DNA from: Pyxicephalus adspersus
Lineage: Eukaryota > Chordata > Amphibia > Anura > Pyxicephalidae
DNA length: 64,000 nt
Direction: 5' to 3'
Assembly (NCBI RefSeq): GCF_032062135.1
Contig: NC_092868.1
Coordinates: 44,272,196-44,336,195, forward strand
The translations under genes were made by a program, and so were the position numbers. Shown one piece after another: positions 8,376 through 52,147 of the stretch (positions are counted from its first letter, which is position 1; every line of letters begins with the position of its first letter). Under the pieces are notes generated by a model. The model was not told the DNA's origin and did not search any database. It worked only from the letters and a program-made list of their open reading frames with translations.

Positions 8376-8458
8376 CTGCTGTCTTCAATCTTTTCTTGTG
8401 AGACTGTCATTTTCTCAGTTTTTTCTGCAGATAGTTTTCCACTTGCTTTCTTCCTGCT
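8376..8458 (-). CDS. Internal coding exon D of the same minus-strand gene
   Basis: The 83-bp exon has an excellent acceptor (TTTTCAACTGCAG) and a good donor (CAG|GTAGGT). Starting in phase 0, as exon C requires, it is open for 27 codons and leaves two bases, AG. The peptide is rich in Lys and Ser: SRKKASGKLSAEKTEKM followed by TVSQEKIEDS, suggesting a charged, probably disordered tail. Intron C-D is about 7.7 kb. The following exon must begin with one base of a codon. The best downstream candidate (7360-7451) does not meet this without another exon or another acceptor. Confidence 0.7.
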
Positions 8459-8627
8459 CTGCAGTTGAAAATATTAAACATATTATAAGGGTGTAAGTAT
8501 ATATGCGTAAAGCATCTACTAGAAAGCACATGTGAACAAAGTGAGAAATGCCATTATTCATGATGTATAGTTAGTGTTATTTAGGTATTTTTATGAAAAC
8601 TGTTTGTCTATCTATCCTACCATCTAT

Positions 8628-8797
8628 GGCCCTGACTTATTAAAGCTCTCCACAGCTGGAGAGGATACACTTTCATCCATGAATCTGGGTGATCCAGCAA
8701 ACCTGGAATGGATCTGGTCCAGGATTAAAAAACATTTGCTAACATTGGCTAACAAATAGCAAAGGACTTTTAAGAAATCCATTCCAGGTTTGCTGGA
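8628..8797. mobile_element. Palindromic MITE copy, right arm truncated
   Basis: GACTTATTAAAGCTCTCCAC starts the left arm. The right arm (CCATTCCAGGTTTGCTGGA) stops before its outer half. Confidence 0.75.
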
Positions 8798-8886
8798 TAT
8801 TTATATATTTTATTTATCCTTGTCTAAAAAAATAAATCTATTTATCTATCCTGATTGATTTTACAAGTATTTTTAGGAGGGGGTGA

Positions 8887-8944
<58 letters not shown>
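8887..8944. repeat. (TATC)n microsatellite
   Basis: Fourteen uninterrupted TATC units; scattered imperfect TATC words continue to about 9020. Confidence 0.97.
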
Positions 8945-8945
<1 letters not shown>

Positions 8946-9735
8946 ATCCAAGTATGTTTGTCATCTAATGATAAAAACTATCTATCTATGCATAACTATG
9001 ATCTCTGGCTATCTCTACATATTCATATCAATGCCATCTGCTGTAATATACCATTTTAAAAATAGCTAAACATTAAATAAAAAAAGGAAAATATCTTGGC
9101 GCATTTTCACCTAAACCAGATAATCGTGAGGTTAACATTTTTAATAATAAATTACTAGTATTTAAACTTTAAAATGAAATGGGATTTATGGTTTAAATTA
9201 AAAGTACATTCTCATACTCGTTTTCAACTTTTTGTATAAACATTCACTTTTCTTTTTTAGTTTACATACCCTATGCTGGGGAAGAATCTTTTTTGCTTTG
9301 ATTTTCATGTTCTTTAAATGGATTTATTATGAACATTTAGACACAGGTATACTAAATATTTCTTGTTATGATATTAGCCTTTCTTCACAGCTACTGACAA
9401 AAACATGAGATTGCAGATAAGGAATATTTCATTCTGGTAACACTCGGGAACGCATTTTTTGTTGAATTAGATCTTACACTTTTTTTTTACTAATTTTTGG
9501 GTAGTGAATCCAGAAACGACCACAGTTTTTTGCTATCGCATCCAGTTTTTACGATACAGGGTGCCCTCCATTTTTGTCAAAAAACATACAAATGTTACAT
9601 ACAATGAAAAAATAATGAAATAAAAACTTGAATGTAGGGTTTATTTAAATTTCTCTTGTTCATACAAAGGATTTATTGTTACTCTATGACATTTTTTTTT
9701 ACAGTAAAAAATTTGCAAATTAATAGGGTAAACAG

Positions 9736-11400
9736 TTAAGGTAAAAATTTACGCTTATAGCTTTTCCTGGAGTGTTCAGTGTTAGGACAATTCCGCTGGA
9801 TGCTCCAACAATAGTCAGCCATCATATGTACATCCCATCTACCCTGATACCGTCCTTCCATGACCTTCAATTCTTGGTGGAAACATTCACCTTGCTCATC
9901 ACTGACTGCACCAAGGTTTTCCGGGAAGTTAGAAAGATGGCTATGTGGAAAATGCGCCTTCATGCTCATGTTGCAACCAAGCATTTTGTAGCTCTCCAAG
10001 ACTTTTTGGACAATTTCTTTGTAATTATTTGCTTGTGTGTTTCCAAGAAAGTCCTTGACAATGGCTTTGAATGATAACCAAGCATTCTTTTCGACATTGT
10101 CCTGATGAAATGTTCATCTCTGATGAGCTGCTGAATCTGTGGACCATCAAACACACCAGCCTTTATTTTTTCAAATGACAGGCTAGGAAATGCCAAAATT
10201 AGGTACTTAAACAGTCTCCTTCAGTTGGCAAAGCGTTAACGAACTGCTTCATCAGACCCAGTTTCATGTACAGAGGCGGCAATATAATATTCTTGTTATC
10301 AACAAATGGCTTATGTAGAATGTTTGGATCACCTGGTTTTATGGCAAGTCTTGGAGGCCAATTCCTTTCTAGCCATTACCTCTATCGAGCTTTGTTTTCC
10401 CACATGCACAGATAACTGGGATACTTGGTGTATCCGCGTTGCTGACTAAGAAGGAATCATACCATTTTAAGGTCAACACAGATGACCCAATTGTGTTGGT
10501 GATATTGCAACAACTCAATGACTCTCTTTATGTCTGCATTATCTTCACAAAGAGAAACTGAATGGCCAATTGGGACTGACCCAAATATATTGCTATTGAA
10601 AAGTAGGGCACACTTTAAGCTCTGCTTTCAGCTATCGATAAATAGTCGCCATTAAGCTGAGTTACAGATTGGAATTCCCAATTCCTCCATTAAACCAGGT
10701 GTGTTATGGCAATACAGAAAGCCACCGTCATTTCTAAAGTACTGCAGAAATGCAATTTCCCTGGTTCAAAAGTACGATACCTTTGTTCTTTTTTCAAGTA
10801 AGTTTTTCTCACGCAGTCTTGATGCTAGGAGTTCTGAAGCCTTCTTCGATTGTCCCAAATCATGTGCCAAATCACTTACATCATGCTGATCAAATCCCTT
10901 ACGAACAGAGTCCTCTTCAAACTCTTCATCATTGTTGTCACCTAGTTCATCACCATAATCATGTTCTTCAAGAAAGGATAGTGTAACAAAAACAGGCACT
11001 GGGATTTCATCTGAATGAGCCACTGGGCGTATAACTGATGGTAGACTAGGATAATCTATGTTACAGTTATTTTTCTTGTTATATCCTGAAGTTTTCATTA
11101 TACAAAAGTAAGTCACTGAAATGATCTTCTGGCTCTCGCCAAACCATAGGTATACCAAATGGCATCTTATCATGTGTTCCCACATTTCCACATCCGTAAA
11201 CCCTCAACACAATGTTTGCACACCTTATGAGGGGCCCAAGACTTATCTTGATCACCAAGTTTAATTTTGAAATATCCCAAATAGGCTTGCTCTACCAATG
11301 TGCTGATGTTCGCCCTTTGACTGAGAATGGTGAAACTGCCATAGATATAACAAAATGAATCAGGGTTGTTTAGGCACTTACAACGAGAGCAGCAGAGCCA
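9736..11400 (-). pseudogene. Decayed gene of a multi-copy animal protein family, probably from a mobile element
   Basis: Reading the minus strand from about 11400 to the TAA just after 9740 gives a nearly collinear protein of about 550 codons, broken by stops and frameshifts. In order: a Cys-rich N-terminus (CKCLNNPDSFCYICGSF, then GDQDKSWAPHKVC and a further Cys), which looks zinc-binding. Then an acidic linker and a longest intact piece at 11191-10766 ending ASELLASRLREKNLLEK. Next RLFIDS near 10650, a block with GSVPIGHSVSLCED, then VICVDLKMV near 10480, CMWENKAR, and LPPLYMKLGLMKQF near 10260. Last are AGVFDGPQIQQLIRD (10196-9966) and GCNMSMKAHFPHSHL with DEQGECFHQ (9999-9736). I recall this motif series from uncharacterised, high-copy proteins of arthropods, cnidarians and fish, but I cannot name the family. 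The two conserved Asp positions could belong to an RNase H-like fold; that is inference. Visible lesions include TGA after FIDS and a stop after DLKMV. No terminal repeats were found. Confidence 0.7.
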
Positions 11401-11679
11401 GACATGATCTGAAAGAAAGGAAGTATGTGTGTAAGTAGAAAAATAAATTTTGCTTATTCACTACGTAGAGCAACGCACAACCTCTGACCACACTGTCTTG
11501 CATGTAAATGAATAGCTTATACAAATCCATGCTGTAGTAATCGCATTAGTATAAGCAGTAGAGAAAAAACCTGACGTGATAGAAAAAAAACTAACTGCAC
11601 TTTCAGAGTGAGCATACCAAAAAATGTTCCCCAGTGTACTATAGGTGTGAAAGAGGAATTTAAAAGTGGATCCACATCG

Positions 11680-11694
11680 CCCCCCCCCCCCCCC
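11680..11694. repeat. C homopolymer (15)
   Basis: Fifteen C followed by A-rich sequence; length likely polymorphic. Confidence 0.9.
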
Positions 11695-11699
11695 GAAAA

Positions 11700-13080
11700 A
11701 AAGAAATGTATCTACTGATGTCTGTGTACTACTGTTAATCTGTCTATCCCTATATAGCTATCTCATGATAATCTAGCTCTTTGAATCTCTCTGCTTCTCT
11801 AAATATCTATCTCTGTATCCACCCATCTATCAATTTACTGTACATTTTTTCAATTCATAACATTATCTCTATTTCGACTTGTTCATATTTTTCTGCATCT
11901 ATCTTTCATTTCCATTCTAATGCTCTTTAAATCCTCACAGTTTACAGATCTCTATCATAGCACTTCTCATCAAAGCTTGTTCTTTTTCTCAAAAATCAGA
12001 CGTGTAAAGTAATCTTCCGACATCATTCTCTGATCAATTTCAGGTGGATTGATGAATGACTGAATAGGAATGACCTCTGTGCACTCCTATGAAGGGGAAC
12101 ACAAAGGGGTGCCTCTTGTTTGTCTTCCTTCCCCAGCCCTCACCATGTGTACAGCACTCATTAGTTCATCTGTTACTGGAAATGATCATGAAAAATTGTT
12201 TCCAGCAAAAAAACATCTGATGTCTATCAGACATCTGTATGGGGCTTATGTTTTTAGGTTGTCTGGTAGTAATGTAAATGATTTTATTTGCACTGTAAAA
12301 TTAATATGAAAAAAAAACACGTTTGCTGCTTGTATTCACTTGTGTATGGGCTTTCTTTAATAAGTTTTCATCTCCTATTTTAGTGGCCACACACAAGCCA
12401 AGATTCCTAGATCTTCATTACAATTTTACTATATACAGAAAGCAAACATCTGGACCAGGGGATCAGTGGTGGTGGTTCATTGACAGGAGTAGGCTTGTAA
12501 ACCAATATGCAAGAAGGACATGGCAAAGAACAGATCACATTATTAAAGTATCCCAATAACGATCCTTTATTACCATGACTTACAAATAAGAAACTCAAAG
12601 TCAAGCGACAAAACTTTAACTACAAAAGCACATAAAGCCTTGTTGCACAACACCAATAATCTGATTATATTTGTATCCCCTGTGTTCATTGCTGTGCTTC
12701 ATGAACCATGATGCCTAGAAGGCATTACATAGGATTCAAAGAAGCACAAATTTGGATCAGCTTGTGATAACATGGTTATGAAACAAGTCGATATAGTCAA
12801 GGATGACAGCTTAAATCCAATGAATGCATCAAGCGTTCCATTGTTGTTCCCAGCCCATCAGGTGATGCTCGGTTTCCTTCACAGCTGTTTCTTGATGTGT
12901 ATTTTCCAAAAACGTTAAACCTGTGTATGTTCGGTGAGTATATTTTTCAAGTTATTGCAACATTTCTCTGAAAATAATTTTGACGTGACTCATATTTTCA
13001 ATAGCTTGCTATTTTATACAAAAGTTTGTTTTTGACCTTTTTAGTGTGCAGCCAGGATTTTTTCTGGAAATGCATTGAAC
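11700..13080. other. No gene recognised
   Basis: Begins with a degenerate TCTATC-rich stretch to about 11830, then unique sequence; ORFs at 12070 and 12323 show no domain. Confidence 0.55.
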
Positions 13081-13083
13081 ACA

Positions 13084-13555
13084 CCAAATAAAGCTGAACT
13101 TCCCTACCACTTACCTTTATAGGTGTAAAGTCCTCGATACCTCCGCAAAACAAGTCCAATAGGTCCCGCACCGCCCTGTCTTTCTTCTTCTTTCCGATGT
13201 GGACAGGACATTGGGCGCTGCCATCTTCTTTCGGAATTCTCTTCTTACGTCAATCGATCTTGCTTTGCACAGGTGTGAAATCGGGTGATTCCCCTTAATG
13301 AAAGTGTAATAAAAATGTGCCAATCTCACTACAGATACCTGAAATCAGCATTTTTTATTACATTTTAGGAAAGCCCTTTCTGCGCATATCTAGAGCAACT
13401 TGCAGCCTCCTAGAATACAATATGTATGTATTCCAGGTGGCTGCAGGTTTGCCATTCAGTCTTTACTGCCAGGCCCTCCTCCCAAAAAATTGTTTATAAA
13501 AAAGTAATAAAAAAAAACAACAATAATATTAAAAGGTTACCTAAGGGTTTGCATG
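13084..13555. repeat. Dispersed ~500-bp repeat, copy 2
   Basis: Same orientation and block order as 3768-4297, more decayed. The palindromic pair has lost its CpG. Confidence 0.65.
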
Positions 13556-14462
13556 CCCACAGAACCCCACAGTATAAGCAAACAAAACCCTATTAACACA
13601 GGCCACTAAAGAAATTCAAGCCTGGACAACTCTACCCCTAAGTTTCGCACTATAAATGATATGTCAGGTATTTTCCATTAAATACAACTAACAATATCAC
13701 ATGTTTTGGAGAAACATAATTTACAACAGTCACAGTTGTAGCAGGTAAAGATTCATGCTATTCCTGACAAATAAAACAAATGCATATAAACAATAAGACC
13801 ACCTTTCAATGACCAGCCTTACCATGAATACTGAAGTCTAGTGTTATGTGAATTGATAGCTACTCATTACAAGATTTATTAGGAGATAAGTGCAATGTAG
13901 TCTGGAGTTCAATAATTGTCACATACTTTCCTGACAATAACCCCTTCTCTGTGCAATAAATCATACATATTAGGCATCATCAAAGTGCGTAGGGAAGAAA
14001 TCCCCTGGGAAAAGGAGCATATTAAGATAAAATGAGGGGTGGTCAGCAGGTTCATTGCTGAATGCAATGTGCAGTCCAGGATATTAGAAATATTATGTTT
14101 ACTACAACTTTCTTTTCTCTATAGGAAATGGTGTGTACCCTAGAAAAAGTTACTTGTATCGTATATTGCAGTGAAACTGATTTCTAGTTAATGAAGTACA
14201 ATGCTTTATCTACATCAAAAAACAGAAATGTATTTTTACTACACATAATGTAGGCAAAAAACAGTTATAGGGGAATTGCTGTCTTCAGGAACAAATAAAT
14301 GGCTTGCTTTAATTGAAAAGTATTATGTGATTGGTTGCTTAGAGTAACATGCTCCCATTTAGCAGTCTGGTGAATGCTAGTTAAATCAGAACTGAACACA
14401 TTAGTGAGTAGTGAGCTTCTGCCGTATCAGCAAGTATGAAAAATATATTTGCATATTATAGC

Positions 14463-14640
14463 ACAGACTTACCTCTTTGCATGTGTTCTGCAGCGATGAC
14501 AAGTCCAGGATCCTGCCAGTCACCGTCGGTCCATGTTGTCCTCTTCGGCCCTTGCATGGCCACTAATGATACAACTACTGTGTGTGTGCCCAAGTGACAC
14601 TGCCCCCAACTGCAAGCTCTACATTACATTGCCCATATAG
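14463..14640. repeat. Probable fragment of a similar dispersed repeat
   Basis: ACTTACCTCTTTGCATG followed by CpG-bearing, GC-richer sequence is like the 3768/13084 repeat in style, but I could not align it throughout. Confidence 0.3.
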
Positions 14641-14644
14641 AGGG

Positions 14645-16190
14645 TCCAAGTAGGGTTCAAACAAAACCTTCACCCCCTCTGTTTATCTTATAACCCTTCT
14701 CAATAGGACCAAAATCGTCTAGGAGGGACATTGTTTGGGTGGCACCCGTCTAGGAGAGGATTTTCCCCAAAGTATGGAGATTTCTACTCATTTTCCTGCT
14801 CTACTTTAAGGACAGCAAGGGAAGAAAAATCTGCCTAGTAAAAGTTTCTTGGTTTCTAAGCATTACCTATTCTACTCAAAAACTAAAATAAGCATTTAGA
14901 CTATGGACATACTGAACTCTAGGCAGATATAATAGACACAATATATTCTATCATATTAAGCCCAAACCTAATATTATTTTAGCAAATGGTTTGACACCCA
15001 AAGCATGAATCCTGCAACCCAACAGAGGCTGTAATTGCCAAGAATATACACTGAGATGTCCATGTATACAGTGTAAATATTTTGATAGAGGAGGTAATCC
15101 TCTATCATTCTGCTTTAATACATAGGTGAATGTATGTTTTAAAATTAAAGCAATATTAGAATGCAAACTGATCTGGTATTAACCTCTTCCAAAGAATTGG
15201 ATTGTGAAAGAATGGAGGAGCAGAATTAACCTACATGTTAATTTGCGAACAAGGAACATGCTAATTGGAGGAGAGGGCAAAAGTAACATCATTACAGTAA
15301 GCGTATTACTTACTGTGCTGCATCTTTTTTAACTGTCCTGTTCTGTGTCAAGGTCCAGAAAGTTTTAGGATTAAAGGAGCAGGTTGAACAGCAGCTAAAT
15401 ATCAAACATCTTGGGATGCAAAAAAAGAAGTAGTGGGTGCAGAGCTCTGGGTTATAATTTTTTTAATGGAATAATTATGTTATCTTCTTTATATGCATAC
15501 ATATATACAATATCTGAAAGCATCAGTAGAACATGACTTGGTACCTTAATGTATCATTTATGCAGCAGAGACATTGGTTACCCTTTATGAAATGGTGTTC
15601 ATGAGCTAGGTGAGCAAAGCCCTATTACCCTGTATAGCCCTAAAGCTAATACAAATGCTGTGTATATTTGTATTCTGAACCTTTCCAAAAATGTATTGGA
15701 AAATTTAATGCCGTATGGACTACATTCCTTAAATACTGATAATATTGTGCTTCCCTATTCCTTTGGCTAATAGAGAGGAAATATCCATGCTAGTGAAATG
15801 TGTCTTTTTTGCTGTTATTCAAAGAAACAGAAGTAGTGAATTCTGCTTTGTTCTCATTCAGTCAATTATCTGTTTTTTGACACCTGCCAACTGCTGTGGT
15901 GATGTGTCTGCTGTTTATTATCTGAATAATCCTTTGTAGGTAACAGGACAAAAAAACAACCATGTTGTTTCACACAGACCTCCTTCAAAGCACAATTCTT
16001 TTTTTTCTCCTCTTGAAGACACATGCTTTCTGATACGTGGTCGGGGGAAGGAGGTATTTATAAATAATTGTGAGAGATGTACTCACCCGAACAAAAGCTT
16101 ATATTTTATTCAGGAGAATGTTGCTTTCCACGAATATGTTCATTCCAGTTTGAAAGATGATAAGACATGTAGCCTATTTACTGATATTGC
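14645..16190. other. No gene recognised in the C-D intron
   Basis: Unique AT-rich sequence within the intron between exons C and D. A minus-strand donor-like GTAAGT near 15305 has an open frame upstream but the phase does not fit either neighbour. Confidence 0.5.
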
Positions 16191-16194
16191 TTAC

Positions 16195-16340
16195 CTTGTC
16201 AGCATCTTCGAGAAGATGGAGGAATCGTGATGGCGTTGGTCCAAACACAACATCTTCAAAAACAGCTTGGCCCATTTCAACTCTTTTATTTGGAGGAGGT
16301 AAAGAGATGTCTTCTTCGTTTATCAAAATCTTGGGATGTT
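16195..16340 (-). CDS. Internal coding exon C of the same minus-strand gene
   Basis: The 146-bp exon is bounded by a pyrimidine-rich acceptor ending TTTCCAAAG and the donor AAG|GTAAGC. The frame is 2 bases followed by 48 complete codons, ending in phase 0. The peptide reads HPKILINEEDISLPPPNKR, then a mixed hydrophobic part containing VFEDVVFGPTPSRFLHLLED, and ends in ADK. It looks more like a folded segment than exon B. The AA at its start joins exon B's final G to give Glu. The intron between B and C is about 33.7 kb and carries many transposons. Additional exons inside that intron cannot be excluded, but none fitting the phase was convincing. Confidence 0.72.
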
Positions 16341-16344
16341 CTTT

Positions 16345-17805
16345 GGAAAAACATGGAAACATTAGGTTGTGTTATTCACAGGAACAAGAAAACATCAGGC
16401 CATAACAGGGGTTTTATTATTGATTAAAAGTGACCCTGAAACCTAACTAAATGGCATTCAGTTTACTAAAGCAGTGTACTTCATTGTTTTTTTTTTGTTT
16501 TTTGCTACAGCCTTTGTTGAATGACTCCCAGAGGAATTTTGGAAACCTGAATCACTAAAAATAAAACTGAAATTTGGATTTGCCCATTCAGCTCTATATA
16601 TTTGGTTTGACTGTATTGCTATCTTAATTCAGGAATTCTACCGTGCAACTGATTTTGAGCGGATGACAAAAAGGACATTTTCATGAGTGTTACTGTGCAA
16701 ATGTAGTCATGACATTGAATGGAAATGTATTTGCACTGCATAAGCCCTGAAACATTTTAAGTTGTGAGATGCCAAAGTTAGTGGCCATTTGGCAGCATCT
16801 TCCTCTAATTTACCTAGGGAAGAGGTTAAAGGTGCTGGATATGGCTGTGGTTAATGGTAGAACCTAAATTTTACAGCTTATTATTTTTTAGGATCTAGGT
16901 CTGGAGTGTATTAAATGGAATGGGTGGACCAAACACTCCATCCCATTCCCAGGCTAGGCTTTGGAGACAGCTCTGCAGCACCTGCCGAATTTCAATAAAA
17001 GAGAATTGATGTTCAGATTGGTGGATGGAGTTGGAGTCTGGAGCCAGGTGTGGCTCAAGGGGACCTAGAAGACGCTTCAGTGGATCTAAGTGCTTAGATG
17101 AGAAAACCAGACAGTGGAGTTTGTAGCACAGACTCTGGGTCCATAGCCTAAAGCTCTCCTGAGGAACAAACTCTGAGTTTGAGACAGTTATCATGGACTA
17201 TTGCCAGGTTGGGACTTTGTTTTGCTGCCTATGTTTTGTTATCAATTCTGTTAAAAAAAAAGCAAAGTTTTCCTTTATTGTACACTAAAGGATGTTTTGT
17301 GTTCAATTTTTTGGACTGTACTGTGTGATGCAGTGATCCTTGTTCCCCCAAATATCACAACCCATATAAAAAGAAAAACTAAAGTTTAGGACTTCCAAAT
17401 AACTATATTCCAGATGTCATTTTTCAAACACAAGCTACAAACAAGAGCCAAAACCTGAACTGTTTCTTTGGCCAAAATCTCAACTTCTTTTTACTTTATT
17501 GGTACACTAGATCTGCATAACCTTTTGCATCCATATGCTGCCTCTAGCCCTTTCTGCCAATACAAACAGATATTAAAACTGGCAGCTGATGTTAAAGATC
17601 ATACCATTCCATTCTCTCCTTTTTAGTATGTGAGAAATACAGCAGCGCAGCGTGAATAACACTTGATAATGTTATCGCTACAATAACAATTCCTTAGGGC
17701 AGTTAACAGATTTACTGCATGTGGGTATAGAGGTATGTGAAAAATGTAAAAACTTGTAATCATTTGATAAAAAGATTAATTGTTCCATGGTTGGTATACA
17801 AAAAT
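16345..17805. other. No gene recognised, start of the B-C intron
   Basis: Unique sequence; ORF at 16895-17194 (minus) has no recognisable domain. Confidence 0.55.
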
Positions 17806-17808
17806 ATG

Positions 17809-18130
17809 TTAAAGCTGAACTCCAGGCAAGCTTTTAAATACATATTTCTAATCCACACAGTTCATACATTTGATCTGCCAAATTATTTGTATTATTGTTC
17901 AACCAGTGTGAGATTAGGACATTCTGCAACATACAACAGCCATGTCCTGGACCTGCTTGGGGACTACAATGCTTGCAATGACACAGCATAGTCCAGTGCT
18001 AGCCCAACAACCAGTTACTGGACCATACAGGAGCCACTTAATAATAAGGAGGTCATCCCTAAGCTCTCAATAATATGTTCTGTCGGTAAAACATACCTGA
18101 CTAGCCCTTTGTACTGCCTTTTTCCTTCCT
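17809..18130. repeat. TTAAAGCTGAACTCC-type repeat
   Basis: Starts TTAAAGCTGAACTCCAGGCA, a head that recurs in variant form at 46620, 56885 and (inverted) 19645. This suggests a TTAA-targeting short element. The right border near 18130 is a guess. Confidence 0.4.
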
Positions 18131-18484
18131 CATTGTTAATGTGCACCAAATTACAAAGGCAACATGAAGACAGATTGAGATGTAAAAATATATGTCACTG
18201 CAAACTTAACATTGACAAATATCTTTAGCAAAAGGAAATTATGAAAAAAAGTTTGGTGATCACCCATTACTCGATCACCTTCAAGAAATACTGAGTGTTC
18301 ATAACCAGGGAACACTTGGTTGTCATTTTATAGGCTTACATAAAAAAACATTCAGCAAACAAAGATTCTGGCAATCCCAGGGTTTGACAGCACATCCCAA
18401 TGCACACATTTACTGGGCAGCTATTGTATGTTCCTCAACTGTGTTTAAAACCTTACTTATACAGTACATACGGTACTTACATAC

Positions 18485-18660
18485 TACGAGCTGCGGTTGA
18501 AGGCAGCTGCATTCAAACCAATGCGAGCTGCTGGCAGCCAAAAGCAACATGTTTCATTTAGCAACCGCAACTGCAGTGCACTACAACAGCAGCGCATGTG
18601 CCTGCACAAATGTCTCCCATTTAGGAGCTGTGGTCAGCTGCAGATCAGAAGTTTGTCTAA
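18485..18660. repeat. Partial copy of the same MITE, directly upstream
   Basis: GCTGCATTCAAACCAATG, CAACATGTTTCATTTAGCAA and CTGCACAAATG follow the core of 18940-19110 in the same order and orientation. Outer ends are absent on the left. Confidence 0.6.
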
Positions 18661-18770
18661 GTGTGCATTTTGCAGAAATAATAGATGAGCAAACACATTT
18701 TTGACCAATGAAGGAACAGCAGCACACCTCTGAGGAGATCAGTAATACTTGTTTAGAGTCTAAGGCCCCT

Positions 18771-19490: not shown

Positions 19491-20276
19491 TTAGCTTCTC
19501 ATGCTAACCTTACGTCTCCTAGTAGGTGTGAAGGAAGGAGGTTACAGGAAGCAAAACTTACAACAAAATCATATACTTACACTAGCTGCTTTAAAAATGC
19601 CTTTAATAAATATATAATTCTATACATTTTTTTTTCTAACAACCTGGAGTTCAGTTTAAAACAAATAAATTTGAAACAGATAAACAAAGGGGTAAAATTA
19701 AGAAGCCATATTCCCTAAGTGGGCTTGCTGCAGAATATGATCATGGGTCCTAAATATTCACAGCAGAAAAGAACCTTAAATTATAGTACCGTATTTCATT
19801 ACAATCAGAATCATCTCTCTCCATGAAAGGTCTTTATTTTCTAATTGCAATACATTTAAAGAGTGTTAAGCATTTTACAACTACAAGGACATTCTATTCC
19901 ACCATTAGCTTTAGCTGAGGTAGCACTATTAATGCTCTGAGCAATGACTAGGAACCAAATTGCTGGTGGCATAATTGTAATATTCTATTGCACTCCATTG
20001 TCCAAGGAGATGTTACCATTTCTTTCATGTTACAATAAAAAAGTTGGGAACATTAAAATGAACTTCATATTGTTACCAAAAATGTTTGCTTTTTAAAACC
20101 TTTAAACAGACAAGTTTGTTTTATACAAGTTTGTTTCAAATAATGCAGTTATTCACCACTATTGATATGTGCTGAAAGGCTGCAGAGATTTAAAATGCCA
20201 CAAAGCTGGTTGTATTGTTTGGGATCCCCTAATGGTTGGGAAAGACACGAGTCATGCTCTGGTACACACATTAGAT

Positions 20277-24210: not shown

Positions 24211-24212
24211 CC

Positions 24213-39760: not shown

Positions 39761-39764
39761 CATG

Positions 39765-41850
39765 ACCGCACATTGCTCATTAGTGCCATTGTTAAGGTTT
39801 GTTTAAAGTGCCCATACCAATGCCAACCTAACGCATAGAGAGGTTTGTGTTAACACAACACAATAATAGGAATAAGACCTTATTAGGGTTTTTCTCTTCA
39901 AATCAACAATCCAAATTACATCATTTTTGAAAATAAACAAAGAAAATAAATAAAATCTACAAATACTAATCAAAACAGAACAAACAGTATTGATTTTTAA
40001 TTTGAGAATTAAACGATTTTGTAATTGTCATTAAAGCGATCTGCCATAAATTATTGCTTATATTATTTTTAATTTAGTCTAATAAGTAATTAAAAGTTGC
40101 AAATAAAATGACAGTAGATGTGCATAATTTCAGGAGAAAATAATTGCATAAAATTAGGTTTCTTTACAAGTTACACAGCTTGCAGTATTAGACATATTAT
40201 GGTATGTGTAAAAAATATAATTAGTTATTTTCATTATAATAATCTTGCCTTAATTTTTCTAACTTGCATGGGGTTCATACTTTTTTTTATAGCAGTTACA
40301 AAGAATATGGACTCATTTGCATCAAACTCTACCCACAATGCAAGTATAAAAGGGTCATGTACCTATTAGTATAATTTCACTGAATGGACAACGCACCAAC
40401 ATGAAATCTATAAAATTAAAAAAAGAACAGATTATCTCCATGCAAGTTATTTGCTTGGTAGAAATCATCCTCAGGACAAGGCAAGACTGATAACCACTTG
40501 TGTACATGTGCAGGACTTCAAAATTTATAACGCCCTGGCCCTCTGCATAGCACTACATGGAGGAACCTGCTGAGACTTCTTCACACACACCAAGTATTGT
40601 GGTACGTGTTGTTCATTATCATGATCCTTGACCTGATGCAAAACTCTATGGTGGTAAAAAGATCCAGGCCACAATTCTGATTCTGGGAAAACCCCTGTAT
40701 GGGAACTCTGAACTCCACTGAAATGGCTGCCCTGCGAAATGAGGGACACCCAGCAAACTCTCTTCGAAAGTACATCCAACCTGTGGTATATCTCATAATT
40801 ATTCTGAAATTCCAAATCACCTTTATCCCCCAAGGAAGCTTTGCAAAACATGTCAGGAAAATAGGATCAACTTCAGAAAGAATCTAGCCATGTTCCTGAT
40901 ATCTTTTTTACATGAACTCATATAGTACTTGTTGTTGTATGTTATATACACTATTAGAGAGTTGTTTTCTAATAAATATATATACAGTATATGTATTTAA
41001 GGTTTGTATTTTAGTAACAACCTTAAAAACCCCATTCATCCATCAGTCCTAAAACAGCTATATGGGTCTCTTGTCTTTGCTTTTGTTTATTATTTATGGC
41101 CTAGCAAGGGCAAGAAGACAAGAATCGCATGGCAATAATGATGAGGAGAGCCCAGACTTTGCATCGTTGGAGCGCAAATTCTAAGAGATAATTCTGCCCA
41201 ACATGCAAATATCTACAGCATACTTGCACATTATGGAAAGATCTATGGGGACCTGCTGTGGCATAGTTCTACTTTAAAGACTTCTGCATTCCATTGCACC
41301 ATTCTTTATAATTTGATTCTAAAGTTTAGTGGCACATACAACTTTCTGTAGACCAAGAACAATATCTTTAACTTGTTGAAGCTGAAAGAGAGCATTTTTC
41401 TATGTTCAAATTACATATTGTAAAGTCCTCACTTTGATTAATGATGCATTGTGTATTTTTCTTTTTTTTAGGGAGGCTGTATGGACGGTATGCCACCCAA
41501 AATCCAGGATAAATACTGTGACATCGACCCCTCTTGTCTAAGAAGCTTGCCACCATTAATCATCCCAAACCTCATGAGAATAATTCAATTACAGGAATTA
41601 GTTGCCAACTATCTAAGGACATCAGAGGAGACTTAACACTTTGTCTTGTCCCAGGGCCTAAATAAATACAAAAGGAATAGTTGTACTTTTTCCGGCATCT
41701 GCCAAAAGAAAATGAAATATTTTACATAAACCACCAACACATTGAACACAGTTGGTATAAGAGGGTAAAAGATAAAGTACTGAAACATTTTATTAAAGCA
41801 GTACTCTAGCCTACTGGGAATGTTGGAAAGGTTTACAGAAATCACTAAAA
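39765..41850. other. No gene recognised
   Basis: AT-rich; a block at about 40440-40890 is denser in ORFs on both strands and may be an old repeat, not classified. Confidence 0.5.
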
Positions 41851-41856
41851 AACTAC

Positions 41857-41956
41857 CAGATACACTTTCATCAGTGAACCTGGGTGCTGGATCATGTAGC
41901 TTCACCGATGAAAGGTTATTTTCTCTAGCCTTGGAGAGCTTTAATAAATAAGGCCC
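41857..41956. mobile_element. Palindromic MITE, internally deleted
   Basis: Contains ATACACTTTCATCAGTGAAC and, inverted, GCTTCACCGATGAAAGG plus CTTGGAGAGCTTTAATAAAT. The central part is missing. Confidence 0.65.
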
Positions 41957-41959
41957 AAT

Positions 41960-44900
41960 GTACTATGTTTCAATTGCCAAACCAGAGCAGTTAATATGTA
42001 GACAGAGAAATGTGTCTGTACCAAATCTTTACATGAAATTAGGTTGCATGACAACGTAGCTTACACAGACAAAATCAAGAGAAGCTCCTATTACATCAAT
42101 CAAAGGATCTCACTTTTATTTTCAGTTCAGAAAGCAAAGGCAAAGGAGGAGCAGTGGACTGACACAGGTCAGGGATAAAATTGGTTCAATTGTGTTTGAC
42201 TATTCCAAATATAAAGGTTGTTTGTCCATGTTAGTTTTATTTTTTTTTAACTGGATTAAAGCCTGAATTAAAATTATTTCAAACCAAATGTGTACAGACC
42301 ATCCTGTTTCCCTCCAACACTCTTATACACAACCTTGGTCTGCCCAACAGATGAAATTAAACTCTGCTGCTTCATGTTTATGGCAAAGGCTGCTACTCTG
42401 CCTTTTAGTGTTCAGAGTCCAAATGGCTAATTGCCAGGCTCCAATGATGTTACGTTGGAGATATGATAGAGAACAAATATTAACCAACAAATATGGTCAG
42501 TATTTGTATTATATCTATTATATCTATTCAGGGACTGCAGCAAGCACTGGGGAGGTGGGTAGAAGTAGGGGTATATAAGGGCACCAGTGCATTTCTACAC
42601 AGAAAATGTGTTTCTTTGTGTTTTTTATATTAAGTTTATATTGCCATGATATATTGTACAGCCATTGTCTTAAAAATCCCATCCATCCACAAAAGTTAAT
42701 TATTAGGTCACAATAGGTAGGTTGTCTTCTTCTGGCTATGAATGAGGTTCAAGAGGAATCTCCTGGTTTTGACTGATTGGTTATATGTGTTGTTGGTGTA
42801 TAAGCAGTATGTGTGCCTGCTTACTAGCCATTGTGCCACACCTTGGCAGCTTTCAAAATTTCAAACTGGGAAGGTACCCTCCACATAAGATGCACACACA
42901 AAAGTAAAAATGCAAATGTGTACTCAGGACATTGTGTGGAATAGCCCAACTGTATTAAGGTAATCAGCAAAAACACTGCAAAGACCTTCCAAGTGTAGGT
43001 AGGAAGCAGAAACAGACAAACAATATGCAGCTTCTGGAGTTCAGTGTGAAGTAGATGCAGTTTGGAAATAACATCAGCTTCTGCATGTGTGCCAATGCTA
43101 CCATTATTAGGCCAAGACTCGGGGCTGTAGGGGAAGAAGAGGAAGAAAGGTTTTTGGGGCCCAAACCTAGCCATTACACATCAGTAGAGTAAGTATTTGG
43201 AGATCAATGTTGTCTTCAGTGATACATATGTTGGTGATAAAACTACTTGAAAAACCAAAGCCAAAACATAAGCCCAATCACTGCACATCAACCACGGCAG
43301 CATTGAGATTTTTATTGGAGTTTGTCTATTAGCCATACAAAAAGTAAGAATTTAACAAGATTGGCCAGCCACAGACTATAACAGGATTGACCTCAATGTT
43401 AGAGTATGCAAAATTGTAAAACAAGATTCACCAAACCCTTACCAAAACAAACCTGGGCAGATTTACCCATCACTAATCACCAAGACATATACAGAAAGTA
43501 AATCAACCCAGTGGGGACAATAATAAGGAGTTTTTTCTTACTAAAACTAACCAAAAATTGCCTTTTTATACACTCTTAAAAAACAAAACTATGAGTTATT
43601 TTGGAGAAAGGTTCTCAAATATCTAATGATGGGGAGATTAACTCTTGATGCCAATACCTGGTGTGCTGCCTGGGTTAAACTATGCCGATTTACCTTTTAC
43701 AGCAAGCTGAGACCCTTGTAATACACTTCAATTCCAAAGTTCTATAGATCAACCAGGAATGGACAGATGTTGAACATACTGACACAGTCATTAAAACTTC
43801 ATAATGACATCAGGAGTAGTCATATAGGAGAGAAACTTTGAAGAAATCAGGACATTTGATCCTACTATGAACCATTTGTTTAGCATCAGTTCCACCTCAT
43901 GGTTTCTAAGAAACCCACTGTCACTTACTAAACCATAACTCAATACTTAAGGTACAGCTTGAAGAAGTTAGGAGGGAGCGGGGACAACGAAGCTAATGAG
44001 CACATTAAAATTTGTAAGGGGTTCAGGACAGGGGACATTCCACAGCACTATCACCAGATAGGCAGAACATTGTTTTGAAACCAGCTTTGTTGGAAAAAAT
44101 AAACTTGCATTTCAATGATTTCCGCCATGGTACTTTTTTGTAACATGTTTAGTCTGATGGCCTGCATCCTTTAACCCACTTCTGTCTTGGACCAACCCTA
44201 GCCTTGCTGTGCAGAAATTTGAAAAGTATGATACCAGGTCAAATTCAGGCTCTGCTTAACCTTAAAAAAAATAATGATGCGTTCTGGATTACAGAGCTGC
44301 AATATTGTATGTTTTTCATACCTGTATACAGTTTGGCTTTTTTGTTGAATATTTATGTGTGAATACACTCGTAGCCACACTGCCATAATGCTTGCAGTAG
44401 CGGTAGCACACACTTTGCCCCAAAAAAGGATACTCTGACTTGTCTGCAATTTATATAGTGAGAAGGTATTGATTAGCATAATACCAGAACCCTTCTGAGG
44501 ACTGGTGTTGTAGCAGTGTGTTCCTATATGATTTATTGTTTAACAAAAGTTGAACTACGTTTTCTCACACTTGCTCCATACCGAGTTTGGTGCTCTTTCC
44601 TAACCACTTTTAGAATTATCTAGCACTCCATAGAGTTTCTCTTGTTATAGTTCAAATTTAGAGGAATTTACTGAAGAAAATGAAGATTTTGGCCATAGGT
44701 TTATATTGATCTAGCCAGGTACAAATGAAAACAATGTGAAATATTTAGGCACATGACCTGTTGCCCCTAAATCACTCAAAGTGAAAATTTTCCAAGGTAT
44801 GCCAAAGTGTACCCCATAGTCAAAAGAAGTCTTCTATTTTTAATCATAGAATACTACCTGCAAAATCACATGGTTTATATTTCACAATAAAGTCAACGAA

Positions 44901-45460
44901 GGTAATGGGACAACAATTCAAACACCATGACCATCACTTTTTATCATAATCAGTCTTGTCTTTTGAATGTTCTTGTTCAAACCCAAGCTGCATTGTATGT
45001 ACCTGATCTGCAAGAAAAAAATCTGTGGTGTTTCCAGCCATATATATCATTACAAAAACTGCGGACAGTCTTTCAGCTGCTTTACCTACTAAATGGTAAC
45101 GCTCTCTGCTTTAAAAAATATATAGATGACCTAGCATCTCCAAAACAATTCAGAGGGAACATTTTGGCTGTATTTTCACAAGTTTGGATTTAGAAGGGTC
45201 ATTTCTAAATACTTACAGTAAATGTCTTCATAATCCTTGCATTCCACAGATCTGGGCTGTCTTGGAGCCAAGTGCTAGAATGCTGGTTCCAGCATATGGC
45301 TCCAATTTTATGAAGACTCTGTGTGACAGTGATTGAGAGTTTCTAAAGCCCTGGCAGTAGAAGGAAGAAAAGGGACAGAGCAGCAGCACAGGATACAGAC
45401 TTCCGAGCAAAGGTTTTTTTTTCATGACATTAATGTTTATACTTCTCCCATTGAGCAGTC
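41960..45460. other. No gene recognised
   Basis: Mostly unique sequence. Minus ORFs at 42824-43174 and 44198-44479 have no recognised domain. A donor-like GTAAGT (minus) near 45212 adjoins a short open stretch in a repeat-like context. Confidence 0.5.
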
Positions 45461-45467
45461 TTTTTGT

Positions 45468-45690
45468 CCCACACCTCCTGCTAGGCATCACTGTCTGTTC
45501 GGAAACCCCTGCTAGGTACTCCCCCATGCCAAATTGGGCATTATTGTTCACCCCAACCTCAGTTGGGCACTATTGTTCTTCCCAAACCCCTGCTAGAGAC
45601 TATTGTTTTTCCAGTCCTCCATTAGAAACCATTACTCCTGCCCACACCAGCTGGGCACCATTGTTTTCCTCACCCGTCCTTAATACTACT
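45468..45690. repeat. Decayed ~30-bp minisatellite
   Basis: Words like CTGCTAGGTACT, TTGGGCATTATTGTTC, TTGGGCACTATTGTTC, GCTAGAGACTATTG and CTGGGCACCATTG recur every 30 bases or so. The overlapping plus-strand ORF shows a matching 10-residue rhythm and is probably a by-product. Confidence 0.65.
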
Positions 45691-45907
45691 GTCATCGGTA
45701 GTTCTGTAGTGATGTATCAGTCAATGGATAGAACCACAGTGCCCAATGGGAGGTCAACCTATCCAGTACACTAAAATGTGTTGGATAGCAACTATTTTCT
45801 TAGTTTGCAGGAAAATGAAGGTGTTATATACATCCCATAAAAAGGGTAACCATTACAAAAAGGAAACCCTTTTTGTACAACAGCAAGAAACAAGAGGTAT
45901 CTCTCAT

Positions 45908-45960
45908 CTTAGCTGCAAAGTAGGATAGGAAGGTAGCTGCAAAGTAAGATAGGGAAGGTG
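45908..45960. repeat. Short tandem duplication
   Basis: AGCTGCAAAGTAGGATAGGA is followed at once by AGCTGCAAAGTAAGATAGGG. Confidence 0.75.
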
Positions 45961-47859
45961 CCTAAGAAGTAACATAAATATATCACATTTTTCTTCACAT
46001 GCAAAGTGTCTCTCTACCCTTTCCAACGTGTAAAAAGCAAGTCATGGGTGAAACAGAAATATTAACCTACAAAGCAAATCTCATTTTTTCCCAGAAATCA
46101 CAGATGGTAAAACTACACAATTTGCTGATATTATCCCTTGGTGGGGAAAATGAGTGTCTGTAAACTTCCATCTGTATTACTGCCATGGAATGGAATATTT
46201 CGGGCACATGAAAATATTTTCTGAATGAGATTCTGCAGGTGTCGACATTTCAGATAAATATAATGTATAATAATCACTCAAGCCCCTTTGTATGTGGAAT
46301 CTGCAATAGTATCATGTGAATGCCACTGTCAGTGCTTGGTACAAAATTCCTTAGGTGTTTGCTGGCAACAATTATTCACAGTATGACTGGGACCTGCAGC
46401 AGCTCTATAGCACTGGATGCTTAGCTATTCCCAACTTGTAATTCAAAGCTGTGAGTCAGTCTGTGAGTAGGTAGGTCTCGCTGTGACTCAGACAAAATGT
46501 CTGGCGTGGAGGAGGCATAGCAAATGAGGGAGCTGTTCAAGGAGTATATTTAAGCAATGAAAAGAATGTATTTCTGGAAAACAGTGCCCCACAATGAACG
46601 CTTGTGATATTTCCTGATGTATTAAGGCTGAACGCCAGGAAAACAGAAAAACATACTGTTTAAATATAAAATATAGGCTGATACAAAAGACACAAAATAA
46701 TGCTGTAAAGGTTCTGTACTAAGGCAAAGATCATTAAATATATTTTTTAAATTCCAAGCAGTGCCTTGCAGGTAGAACTGAGCTGTACGGCAGGATGTTT
46801 GCATCTCAGGACAGAAGATCATTTTGGCATATATTTGTAGTTGTGTTCAGCTTTGTTTAGCCTTCCCAACCAGAAACCACAGCTCAGGGACTTTACTTTG
46901 TACTGCTACAGTTAGGCGAGACAGCTTTACCTGGTGGGTAATTGGACAAAAAAAGAGAGGCCTTGCATTGGTGAGCAGTGTTGTTTCTTACTTTAAAACT
47001 ATGCACGCTTTTGAAAGAAAAAGCTATAGAAAACCTAGGATCATGCACACTACAGAATGATTTGACTGTGCAAAGCAGTAGTATGCTGATTGACTCAGAG
47101 TATTACTTCTGTCTCTCAGTTTGAGAGTTTGAGGCTCATGTTTATAGGATTACAACAGAATAAGGCTAAAGCTATGGCCAACTTGTATACTGGATACACT
47201 AGTTGTAAATAAAAGTGTATTTCATAATAAATGGTGATTTATATTTTCCTATTATTAAATTAAAGTTTATCAGCTCACTAATGCTGCATTTTTGGGATGT
47301 TTTGAAGATAGTTGGCAGAGGTATAGAATAATGCAAGTCAAAAAGTATGCTAGAGGTCAGATGGCTCAGTGCACACTTTAAACTTAAGTCATGCAGGGTC
47401 AAACTATCTGCTTTGGTTGCCATTTTCTGACACTTCTCCCAGCTGTCTCGCCCACTAAAAAGCAAATACTCTGCAGCACAATAAAAATAAATTCATCTTT
47501 TTCTTTAATAACCCCCAATTTTAATATACAGGGGATGCATCCCAGCCTAGCCAGTGAAGATGGTCAAAAATTACTTCCAGGACAAGAAGACAAAAGAAGA
47601 TGGCAGCATCCTGTTACAGAACAAACACAGGTAAAACCTGGATTAGTTTTAAAATACTCCCCTAGTAGTTTTCTTTAGTGTGTGGCAATACCTCTATTTA
47701 CCAGCTGGTGGCAGTGCAGCAAATATTGTAATTAGAGCTCATGGCACCAAACAAAATGGGAAGGTGCAAAAACACTGAAATGTTCAGTGCTACAACACAG
47801 AAGCATTACAATTAAGGAGTTCAGTCCACAGAATACATTCCTCTTGTGTCAATTTTATA

Positions 47860-48340
47860 TGCTTAATGATCTGCACGTTGGCAGGAATTGACCCATGATC
47901 ATCGCTTTATACATGATTTGTAAATGTAAACGTCTTTAATAATTCCCTGTGTGCTTCAAATAAACAAATTAAAATCAACCCACAGCACCATCAGTTCCTA
48001 GGAATATTTGGTCAGGGCAATTAAAATGTTTGCTTTTTCTCCCCAGAAACAAATATGTTTGTTTTCAATTTCAGCTGGTGATATATAATTCATATATACA
48101 CCTCTGCTCTGTGTTACTGGCAGAAAACTCCAGGGATTTCAACTATTATTCATTCTACCAGAAGTTCAAGTGCTAATATACCTAGGGGATGGGGTACTTT
48201 GAATCATAATATTGAGATTTACTTTTTCATGCAATCTGCTAAATAAATAATACATTAAACACATTAGAGCACCGGAGCCGGTTCCTAGCACACAGCTAGG
48301 ATGCCATTACCTTTTAAAGATCTCTGAATCGTCTTTTTGA
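47860..48340. other. Candidate conserved noncoding element
   Basis: Unique tract with GGCAATTAAAATG and TATATAATTCATATATAC, no ORF of note. Nothing else identified. Confidence 0.25.
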
Positions 48341-49004
48341 ATGGAAGTGTCCCAGTTGCAGAAAAAAATGACATGGCAACATATAAAAAATAAATGCTAT
48401 ATATAATGGAAACAGCCACACAACCCACAAAACAAAATCCATCACATTTTAGAAAAACTACAACTCTTACTCTTAGTATGTGAATGTTTTTTATTCCATT
48501 GTTATTTTAAGATACACATCTGTCAAAAATGAGAACTAAAACTTAAGGCAGAACCAAAGTTTGAAAAAATGCTTTGGAGGAAATGTTTTTCGCAAGAAGA
48601 GAAATAGTGTATATCAGATTATCCACACCAAAATATATACAAAATGTTTTTGCTTTCTGCCAATCCCAAAATATGTTCACAAGGATAAAGAAGAGGATTT
48701 ACCTGATGAACTTTACTTTTTATTATATCTGGTTTTGAGCATAATGTAATTTATTACTTTGTCATGATATGTTACAAACTAGTATTTTGCTAACTCTCTA
48801 TCTCCCTGAGGAAGCCATACAACAAAACGGGTCGGCCATGAGACGACTTTCTTCTCAATTATTCACTTTAAGGTCATTACAAAGGACAAGAAACTTTGCA
48901 TTTGGAGTAACATAAATTAAATATCTGGTTAATAAGGGATTTTTCACTGTAAGGTCTGTGAAAATGTAGAAATCACTCCCACTCCCAAGTTGCGTAGATT
49001 GCTT

Positions 49005-49290
49005 TAAGAAAAAGCTAGATGATTTTTAGAAGCACAGAATATAACTGGGTATTAAGACTTTAAAGTAAAGATACCAGAGACTGTTGATCCGGGGAACATC
49101 CGATTGTCTCATGGAATCAGGAAGGATTTTTTTTTCCCCTGTTGGAGCGAATTGTACCAGGGGTTTTTGCCTTCCTCTTGATCAACATTGTCTATAGGGT
49201 TTTATATCCGGGATACGTTTATTTCCCTATTGGTTGAACTTGATGGACATATGTCTTTTTTCAACTAAACTGACTATATGAATATATGAC
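49005..49290 (+). repeat. Anuran interspersed repeat
   Basis: Contains GGAATCAGGAAGGATTTTTT, TTGCCTTCCTCTTGATCAAC and TTGAACTTGATGGACATATG followed by TCTTTTTTCAACTAAACTGA. I recall this string series from very abundant frog repeats. Family name uncertain. Confidence 0.65.
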
Positions 49291-50013
49291 CATATACCTG
49301 ATATTTTCACAACCCACTTGCTTGTTTAGTTGAATTCTGGTAATATTATGGCTGGTATTTAGGTGTAGTACTCTGTTTGCCTAATAAATAGGCAAAGTTC
49401 ATTATTTTTTGCCACTAAAGCCCCTCTATGTATATCTGCTTCTTTATCCTTTTCCTAGAAGAGGCTTTTTAAAGATTGGTGCAGGAGCTAGATTTTGATT
49501 GCTGGAAATGGTCATTTGTGGTCTTAGGTGCAAATCTAGCATCATTGTCGGTGTCCCACGATGTTGTTTAGCTATCTGCCATGACAGGTCACTAAATGAA
49601 GGACCACTATTATGGACTGTTGTAGTCCTCACAACAGGGTGCTCCCCTTTCCACTCTTTATAGAGCAGACCATGCTGCTAACTTACTGCTGTATCCACAG
49701 CGATCGTTTCTAAAACGTTCACACAAAATGATTACTAATGGCCATTTAGTGATGTGTGACAAACAACATTGCGAGATACCTGTACCAAATTTATATTTTC
49801 ACCCAGGACTATCAAAAACTATCATCTTCAATTATGAAAATCTAGCATTTGTACTGATCTGTTGTAGTATGCATATATGCCATGCTTTGTTTGAAATTCC
49901 CACAACATTGCCATGGTCATGGTCAGCATAACTCTCCTGCAGGCCACAACCTATATGGTTCAAACCAAAGAGTGATAACAAAAAAACTCAGCATGAAGAT
50001 GTCATTAACTCAC

Positions 50014-50189
50014 CATTTTGTCCTGCAGGGAGATCTTCCGCAGCCTCAGAGTGGAGATCACTTTCATCCATTGACAGGTGGGCAGTAGATGATTCCTCTC
50101 CAAGCTTGGTAGATACAGTATTATGGTCGTCCTGCATGAACTTCTCATGGGTCATACATGACAAAGGATAGTTCACACATTCATAGCCG
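50014..50189 (-). CDS. Internal coding exon B of the same minus-strand gene
   Basis: This 176-bp exon starts after a T/G-rich tract ending in TTTGTAG and ends at the donor G|GTGAGT. The open frame is 1 base, 58 codons, 1 base. The peptide is hydrophilic and acidic: it includes GYECVNYPLSCMTHEKF near the start, then a Ser/Glu/Asp-rich part with STAHLSMDESDLHSEAAED, and ends near LPAGQN. This looks like a disordered linker rather than a catalytic domain. It takes one base to finish exon A's last codon and leaves one base (G) that exon C completes as GAA (Glu). Intron A-B is about 1.8 kb. The long open frame, good borders and phase match on both sides make this one of the strongest host coding calls in the window. 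The protein is not recognised. Confidence 0.72.
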
Positions 50190-50687
50190 CTACAAACACA
50201 AACAACTGTTATGTAACATTTATGTATCTTAAAAAAAACAATAAAAGAACTAGAATGCATTTTTAAAACAGGAAAAATCAGAAACTTGAAAATTGGTCCC
50301 TTCGGACCTCATGTATACAATTTTTGAAAGAAAAGCTGTCCAGCCTACAGATCCAATGAATATTCACAATACACTAATGTGGTCTCATGTAACCTTCACT
50401 GCTTTGTAAGTTTCAGAAACTCAGTGAGAAACATGTTCTACAACCTACTGGGACCTAAACCTGAACTTCAGGCAAATATTGAAAAGAAATATCAATTTAT
50501 ACAGTAAAATTATTAAGTATTCTATATGAAATAATGAAATATTTTGTGGAAAAATAGAAATATAATCTGTTTTCACATTAACCTTCTGTAATTCCCCTAC
50601 ACTGTAGGAGGGTTAATACTACAAAGGTCGTACAAAAATTATTTGGACTGAGCCTGGTATTCTGTATGCATAGACAAATGAATATAC

Positions 50688-50721
50688 ATTAAGGTCACCT
50701 GACACAGCTGGTGACCTTAAT
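50688..50721. repeat. Perfect 12-bp hairpin
   Basis: ATTAAGGTCACC at 50688-50699 and its exact complement at 50710-50721, with a 10-base loop. Too short to classify. Confidence 0.85.
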
Positions 50722-51169
50722 GAGTTAATCTTTGGAAATATTGGGTTTGTCTGATCTGAGAGATACCTGCCTTACTGCTTTCTGCTAACCTCTGTGGCCC
50801 ACTTGGTGTGGGTCTGTTTCAGGAGTTTTGCCCCTGAAAAAGTGGACGGGTTCCAAAAAACAGGTCAAGGATACAGCATTGAAATTAATATACTCAATGA
50901 GTGTTGTAATGTATTTTAATTTTTTTAATATTTTGTAAATTTTTAGAAAATTAAAGAATTATGTTTATTGTTATATTAGTGTCAAACTGATTGCCTTTAA
51001 AGTCCCAGTATTTTCTGCAAATTCACATATAATAATAAAATATATTGCAGCATAAACATGTTGACTAAAGAAATAAAGTTGACTATATAAAAGAACATGA
51101 CCCCACAACTGTTCAATCAGCATATTGGGGGTGAAAACTTAAACCAGGCTCTGCTGCTGCTCAATGGAG

Positions 51170-51396
51170 AATACAGATCTAAATGGAGAGTTTATGGATC
51201 CGATGCTTTAATGAAATTTGTTCAAATGGGAAGTTAAATTAGAATGTCAGAAGTATCGGGCATTGCTGGGGAAAGCTGGGGGTGTATACTTGATACTTAT
51301 GATAATATAATAGAATACAGATCTAAAAGGACACTTGATGGCCCTGACCCTAAATTAAGTTTGTTCAAATAGGAAGTTGGATTAGAATCCCGGAAG
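51170..51396. repeat. Direct repeat pair (~85 bp, offset 143 bp)
   Basis: 51170-51252 and 51313-51396 both begin GAATACAGATCTAAA and contain TTTGTTCAAAT, GGAAGTT and ATTAGAAT. They may be an internal duplication of an unrecognised repeat. Confidence 0.7.
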
Positions 51397-52023
51397 AACT
51401 ATGGACTGGTGAGGTAGCAGTCACCTGTGCTTAAGGTTCTGCAAAAACACTATGGATAAAAATCAAAGAAGGAATGAAATACCACACCAAAAATAAAAAA
51501 TGTAAATCTTATTCCATATTCCTGTTGGACATGTGCCCAACAAAAGGACAACTTGAACCAGGGGCCTGAGTGTATAAAATGATGGTATATTCATGCATGC
51601 TCATGACTGCAGCATATGGCTAAAACCTGATGTTATTAAACCTGCCTAGATTTCATCAAAGGAGAAGATTGGTAGCCAAAAAAACAAAATTGAATGACAG
51701 TGATAATACAGTAAGGAGAATTATGGTAGCAAAACCCACAGCAGAAGTTAATATACACCTTGATGTCCTTGATTTCACAAAAATAATGCAGATGGTATGG
51801 TTACAGAAGCTTTAGCTAAATGGGCACCAACAATTTTGCTCATTTTGGAAGTCTGACAAGTCACCCATTTTATTTATCACTTATTTTAACCCCTGGGAAA
51901 CATGTATAACACTGAAGATCAGCCCAGGCAGCACAGTTCAAGAAAGACAACACAACTAAAAAAAAGTCCTACAATACTGGTGTTCACATTATTATGTCCA
52001 CCCCAGTACATCAAGGTACTTAC

Positions 52024-52147
52024 AACGGAGTTTGAAATGGCTTTTCTTCAAAATCTTCAATTAATTCCAGAATGTTTGTACTTGGCAGTTGAGCAGGTGA
52101 TGTGTATTTTATTCCAGCCCTTATTCTTAAAACACGCCCATTTTCCT
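52024..52147 (-). CDS. Internal coding exon A of an unrecognised minus-strand gene
   Basis: The 124-bp segment is preceded on the minus strand by a long T-rich tract ending in AACAG and followed by the strong donor GTAAGTACC. One frame is open through it (2 bases, 40 codons, 2 bases); the frame starting at the third possible offset meets a stop. The peptide contains RVLRIRAGIKYTSPAQLP and ends in an acidic stretch, LIEDFEEKPFQTP. It ends in phase 2 (TT), and exon B begins with the single base C, which completes TTC (Phe). I recognise no domain, signal peptide or membrane segment. That it is a host exon is inferred from splice borders, the open frame and phase agreement with the next three exons. 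A chance ORF is possible but less likely. The exon before it was not found; it must end with one base of a codon. Confidence 0.68.

What the first reader, a model, noticed from the sequence alone, without database searches (positions are those of the whole stretch)
8376..52147. Four phase-compatible exons of an unrecognised minus-strand gene, with a ~34-kb intron
Exons 52147-52024, 50189-50014, 16340-16195 and 8458-8376 each have good acceptor and donor sites and one open frame. All three junctions agree in phase (TT|C, G|AA and a clean phase 0). By chance the three phase matches alone would occur about once in 27. The joined protein (about 175 residues shown) is acidic and Ser-rich in the middle and Lys-rich at the end. 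I cannot assign it to a family, so it may be a poorly characterised vertebrate gene.
Basis: partly seen in the sequence, partly recalled or inferred. Interest (0 to 1): 0.75.

Follow-up and report, generated by a model that had tools for sequence, protein, structure and literature searches.

The report
Frog MORN1 gene, C-terminal exons
The four exons are real, but they are the later part of an ordinary, already annotated vertebrate gene called MORN1 in the African bullfrog, not an unrecognised gene.

Summary
The four exons exist as described: coordinates, splice sites, single open frames and a 33,673-bp intron. They are coding exons 9-12 of MORN1 (MORN repeat-containing protein 1). Extending the gene 70 kb upstream and 69 kb downstream in the same genome gave a phase-consistent model of 14 coding exons over 182.8 kb. 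It reproduces, letter for letter, the public protein [quoted passage not shown], whose contig length equals that of the window's contig. Scored alone, it finds 27 proteins, this one and 26 from other frogs; 26 of the 27 are named MORN1 by their first source. Rer1-family and Pex2/10/12-type genes flank it, and SKI lies 0.49 Mb from its 3' end, as in mammals. The diagnostic MORN repeats lie in exons outside the window, which is why the gene looked new. The "1 in 27" phase argument is weak: 6,418,570 phase-compatible four-exon chains can be drawn from that strand of the window. MORN1's function in vertebrates is poorly defined; a cytoskeletal or ciliary scaffold role is inference.

The parts
52024..52147 (-). 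MORN1 coding exon 9 (residues 248-288 of 487)
   Evidence: AG/GT ends and one open frame; phase fits upstream exon 8 at window coordinates 65334-65444, outside the window; exact in P0001
50014..50189 (-). MORN1 coding exon 10 (residues 289-347), acidic and variable
   Evidence: one match in the whole genome at the tool's sensitivity; median identity to 29 vertebrate relatives 24%
16341..50013 (-). intron of 33,673 bp between coding exons 10 and 11
16195..16340 (-). MORN1 coding exon 11 (residues 348-396)
8459..16194 (-). intron of 7,736 bp between coding exons 11 and 12
8376..8458 (-). MORN1 coding exon 12 (residues 397-423), holding the stretch EKMTVSQEKI, which recurs in many non-mammalian members of the alignment
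   Evidence: alignment A1

Best explanation
The four exons are coding exons 9-12 of the vertebrate gene MORN1 in Pyxicephalus adspersus (shown; the confidence given is for this identity). The full protein has an N-terminal run of MORN repeats (residues about 25-210), then a moderately conserved segment (exons 8 and 9), then a variable, probably disordered acidic and Lys-rich linker (exons 10, 11 and 13, with an EKMTVSQEKI-like motif in exon 12), and a conserved C-terminal segment (GEYVIMV.D.T.PPFLG, exon 14). Most likely mechanism (inferred, about 0.4): the MORN repeats form a rod used for protein-protein contacts, and the C-terminal part anchors it to cytoskeletal, possibly ciliary, partners.
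For: The 14-exon model built from genomic DNA equals P0001 letter for letter. P0001 is named MORN repeat-containing protein 1 isoform X2 [Pyxicephalus adspersus] on a contig of 61,414,313 bases, the length of C11. Of 786 proteins at E <= 1e-3, the best 120 were listed, 110 of them named MORN1 or MORN1-like by their first-listed source by my count, from frogs to sharks and mammals. Residues 248-423 searched alone give 27 hits, all frogs. Pfam MORN matches 30 of 30 aligned members. Rer1-family, Pex2_Pex12 and RING domains lie in flanking DNA, and SKI lies on the same contig. The same genes sit together in cattle (PMC9388378, passages), and a wallaby virtual map lists MORN1-RER1-PEX10-PLCH2 (PMC3170641, passage). 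Trypanosome and apicomplexan MORN1 proteins are reported to show that MORN repeats are protein-protein interaction modules (PMC7725318, abstract). A passage in PMC3689809 writes 'MORN1 (FAP266)' for a Chlamydomonas cilia gene.
Against: None found against the identity. For the mechanism: no function was tested here. FAP266 matches MORN1 only over the MORN region (profile positions 10-196 and 83-138 of 503), not the C-terminal half. PMC5178083 states that the exact function of MORN1 is not known (passage). No RNA reads could be consulted.
Confidence: 0.98

Rival explanations
1. An unrecognised, separate gene.
For: Alone, the 175-aa segment has no Pfam family above cut-off, no significant solved-structure match (best E 0.4) and no hit in the first protein search.
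Against: could not see MORN1: only proteins 0.55-1.75 times the query length are candidates, and MORN1 is 487 aa. With the right length the same segment hits 27 frog proteins, 26 named MORN1 by their first source, and upstream MORN exons join in phase.
Confidence: 0.01
2. Chance exons: a phase-compatible chain picked from many candidate exons.
For: 6,418,570 phase-compatible four-exon chains exist among 265 candidate exon-frames; the exon at 52024-52147 scores only 39th of 88.
Against: Every residue of the joined translation is in a public MORN1 protein of the same species, and it aligns to 26 other frog proteins at 47-78% identity.
Confidence: 0.005
3. Besides full-length MORN1, a short isoform or nested gene starts within the window and lacks the MORN repeats.
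For: Several isoforms are annotated in relatives (labels X1 to X5).
Against: The fragment search, which admits proteins of about 96-306 aa, found none, and the hits are all 445-511 aa. No promoter or start-exon scan of the window was made.
Confidence: 0.02

Closest known systems
Vertebrate MORN1 (MORN repeat-containing protein 1)
   Same: Identical to the annotated Pyxicephalus protein; 84% to Aquarana, 63% to Xenopus laevis, 47% to Pan paniscus by BLASTP; same kind of gene neighbours.
   Different: Only sequence drift, mostly in the linker exons; no difference in kind.
FAP266 (Chlamydomonas flagellar protein, PDB 7sqc)
   Same: Similar MORN array and a similar short N-terminal stretch (E 9.6e-43).
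Apicomplexan and trypanosome MORN1 (PDB 6t4d, 6t4r, 6t69, 6t6q; which organism each comes from is inferred from PMC7725318)
   Same: MORN repeats.
   Different: Solved chains of 216-220 residues, matched only over MORN repeats; nothing like the vertebrate C-terminal half is matched. The shared name does not show orthology.

Membership tests
vertebrate MORN1 | N-terminal run of MORN repeats | tested here: met
   Pfam PF02493 E 9.9e-37, 6 stretches in P0001; 30 of 30 members of A1
vertebrate MORN1 | full-length similarity including the C-terminal half | tested here: met
   model equals P0001; 30-sequence alignment over full length
vertebrate MORN1 | gene order next to RER1, PEX10 and SKI | tested here: met
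   compared; Pfam names the Rer1 and Pex2_Pex12/RING families, and PEX10 rather than PEX2 or PEX12 rests on recall and on the neighbourhood
vertebrate MORN1 | spliced transcript joins all exons | not testable with these tools
   no RNA reads available
FAP266 (ciliary) orthologue | similarity beyond the MORN repeats | tested here: not met
   profile match ends at position 196 of 503
NepR anti-sigma factor (Pfam PF18557) | score above curated cut-off | tested here: not met
   19.3 bits against 25.7; NCBIfam 14.6 against 100; 2 of 30 members match even at E 0.1: chance resemblance

The most novel reading that the evidence does not exclude
The non-MORN half of MORN1 (exons 8-9 plus exon 14, bridged by a fast-evolving linker) is an undescribed conserved vertebrate domain. 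Exons 8, 9 and 14 have median identities of 57, 54 and 55% across 29 relatives, well above linker exons 10, 11 and 13 (24, 31 and 23%). No Pfam family above its cut-off in this protein and no solved structure covers it.
Probability: 0.35. Interest if true: 0.25.

Novelty: already known. Interest (0 to 1): 0.07.

Why it matters
It removes a false lead. A real gene looked unrecognised only because its diagnostic repeats are encoded by exons outside the window, and a first fragment search missed it because of a length filter. It also shows how weak a phase-agreement argument is when many candidate exons are available.

Tried and rejected
CDCA2/Repo-Man was my first guess from memory; I ran one paper search for it and dropped it with no sequence support. 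The NepR matches were rejected as chance. The first protein search with the 175-aa fragment found nothing, because of the length rule. The RER1 exon had no solved-structure match but a clear Pfam match. My first model used an acceptor three bases upstream in the last exon (CAGTAG tandem acceptor), which adds one Val; the annotated protein uses the second AG. One search lists further phase-compatible candidate exons inside the window; the annotated protein uses none of them. Of five other long ORFs in the window, four gave no Pfam match and one a match below cut-off. Rfam and tRNA scans of the window found nothing. Two papers whose MORN1 passages I saw added little: PMC9498580 lists one heterozygous MORN1 variant in a heart-defect patient, and PMC5526581 mentions only the apicomplexan MORN1.

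Full report
Observation. I re-read the four exons from the sequence. All four lie exactly where stated on the minus strand, flanked by AG and GT. Each has one open frame out of three, and the joined translation of 175 residues is uninterrupted. Scored with recalled vertebrate splice matrices, three donors are among the best 0.4% on the strand; the donor at 52024 is in the top 5.1%, and acceptors range from the top 4.3% to 16.8%. None of the four overlaps a repeat found within the 264 kb compared with itself, and exon 50014-50189 has one match in the whole 1.44-Gb genome at the tool's sensitivity.

Is it more than chance? On splice and phase evidence alone, no strong case can be made. The minus strand of the window offers 265 candidate exon-frames at modest cut-offs, and 6,418,570 ordered chains of four are phase-compatible. 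The four exons rank 39, 2, 9 and 10 of 88 non-overlapping candidates. Homology settles the matter instead.

Identification. The window is G000:C11:44272196-44336195. I fetched 100 kb on each side and scanned for exons. Upstream on the same strand were exons with MORN repeats, and further on exons resembling RER1 (plus strand) and PEX10 (minus strand). A human MORN1 sequence that I recalled from memory aligned colinearly to the region. Its MORN-repeat part matched strongly. I then set exon borders from the DNA. Every junction agreed in phase once a further exon at window coordinates -52100 to -52024 and a terminal exon ending at -60652 were added.

Independent confirmation. Searching the resulting 463-residue model found P0001, 100% identical over 100% of the query by the tool's figures, named MORN repeat-containing protein 1 isoform X2 [Pyxicephalus adspersus]. 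It lies on a contig of 61,414,313 bases, the length of C11. P0001 gave the 5' exon, which I located at window coordinates 122075-122147, and showed that the last exon begins three bases later than in my model. With these two changes the 14-exon coding sequence translates to P0001 letter for letter. The gene spans 182,800 bp from start to stop codon. The intron of 33,673 bp is real, but the intron after coding exon 12 is larger, 60,399 bp.

Homologues in other frogs: scored on residues 248-423 alone, 27 proteins reach E <= 1e-3. One is this protein and the other 26 are from other frog species, at 47-78% identity. Twenty-six of the 27 are named MORN1 by their first-listed source; the Eleutherodactylus row is called a hypothetical protein there and MORN repeat-containing by a second source. 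In that search the segment alone reached no non-frog protein; the full-length model did. Splice-junction reads could not be examined.

Why it looked unrecognised. The fragment has no Pfam family above cut-off and no significant solved relative. The first database search could not reach a 487-residue protein from a 175-residue query. The diagnostic repeats are encoded by exons outside the window.

Synteny. Flanking exon translations match Pfam Rer1 (E 3.4e-18), Pex2_Pex12 (E 1.2e-23) and RING zinc finger (E 6.6e-07) families; that the latter two are PEX10 rather than PEX2 or PEX12 rests on recall and on the neighbourhood. A gene with the SKI/SNO domain lies on C11 at 43.72 Mb, plus strand, 0.49 Mb from the MORN1 stop codon, and its best solved relatives are Ski oncogene chains, ahead of Ski-like. 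In cattle a 250-kb region holds FAAP20, MORN1, PEX10, PLCH2, PRKCZ, RER1 and SKI (PMC9388378, passages seen). A tammar wallaby virtual map lists MORN1, RER1, PEX10, PLCH2 in order, in rows that carry human Ensembl ids (PMC3170641, passage seen).

Anatomy and likely function. I aligned this protein with 29 of the 119 other listed hits (120 listed of 786 found). Median identity to this protein is 75% in the MORN part, 57% and 54% in exons 8 and 9, 24% and 31% in exons 10 and 11, 63% in exon 12, 23% in exon 13 and 55% in exon 14. This suggests a repeat rod, a conserved middle segment, a fast-evolving linker with one conserved motif, and a conserved tail. MORN1 proteins of trypanosomes and Apicomplexa are described as showing that MORN repeats are protein-protein interaction modules (PMC7725318, abstract and outline seen). 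One paper writes "MORN1 (FAP266)" among Chlamydomonas cilia genes (PMC3689809, passage seen), and FAP266 is in the PDB; my profile matches it only over the MORN repeats, so orthology is not shown. PMC5178083 (passages seen) says the exact function of MORN1 is not known; the paper searches listed no title on vertebrate MORN1 function that I could use, among the papers they showed. A cytoskeletal or ciliary scaffold is therefore my inference, at about 0.4.

Verdict.

Noticed in passing
window 62177-62381: A 27-bp tandem repeat, about 7.6 copies; long ORFs on both strands overlap it and look like a by-product of the repeat.
   Followed up: no
window 9736-11457 (-): Three long ORF pieces that resemble, from memory, a degenerate transposon-derived protein, lying in the intron between coding exons 11 and 12; no Pfam family matched.
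   Followed up: partly
window coordinates -60536 to -60531 (last MORN1 exon, outside the window): A tandem CAGTAG acceptor that could add or drop one Val; the annotated isoform X2 uses the second AG.
   Followed up: partly
window 16195-16340 (-), residues 372-397 of P0001: A sub-threshold resemblance to the bacterial anti-sigma factor NepR, in 2 of 30 members of the family; taken as chance.
   Followed up: yes
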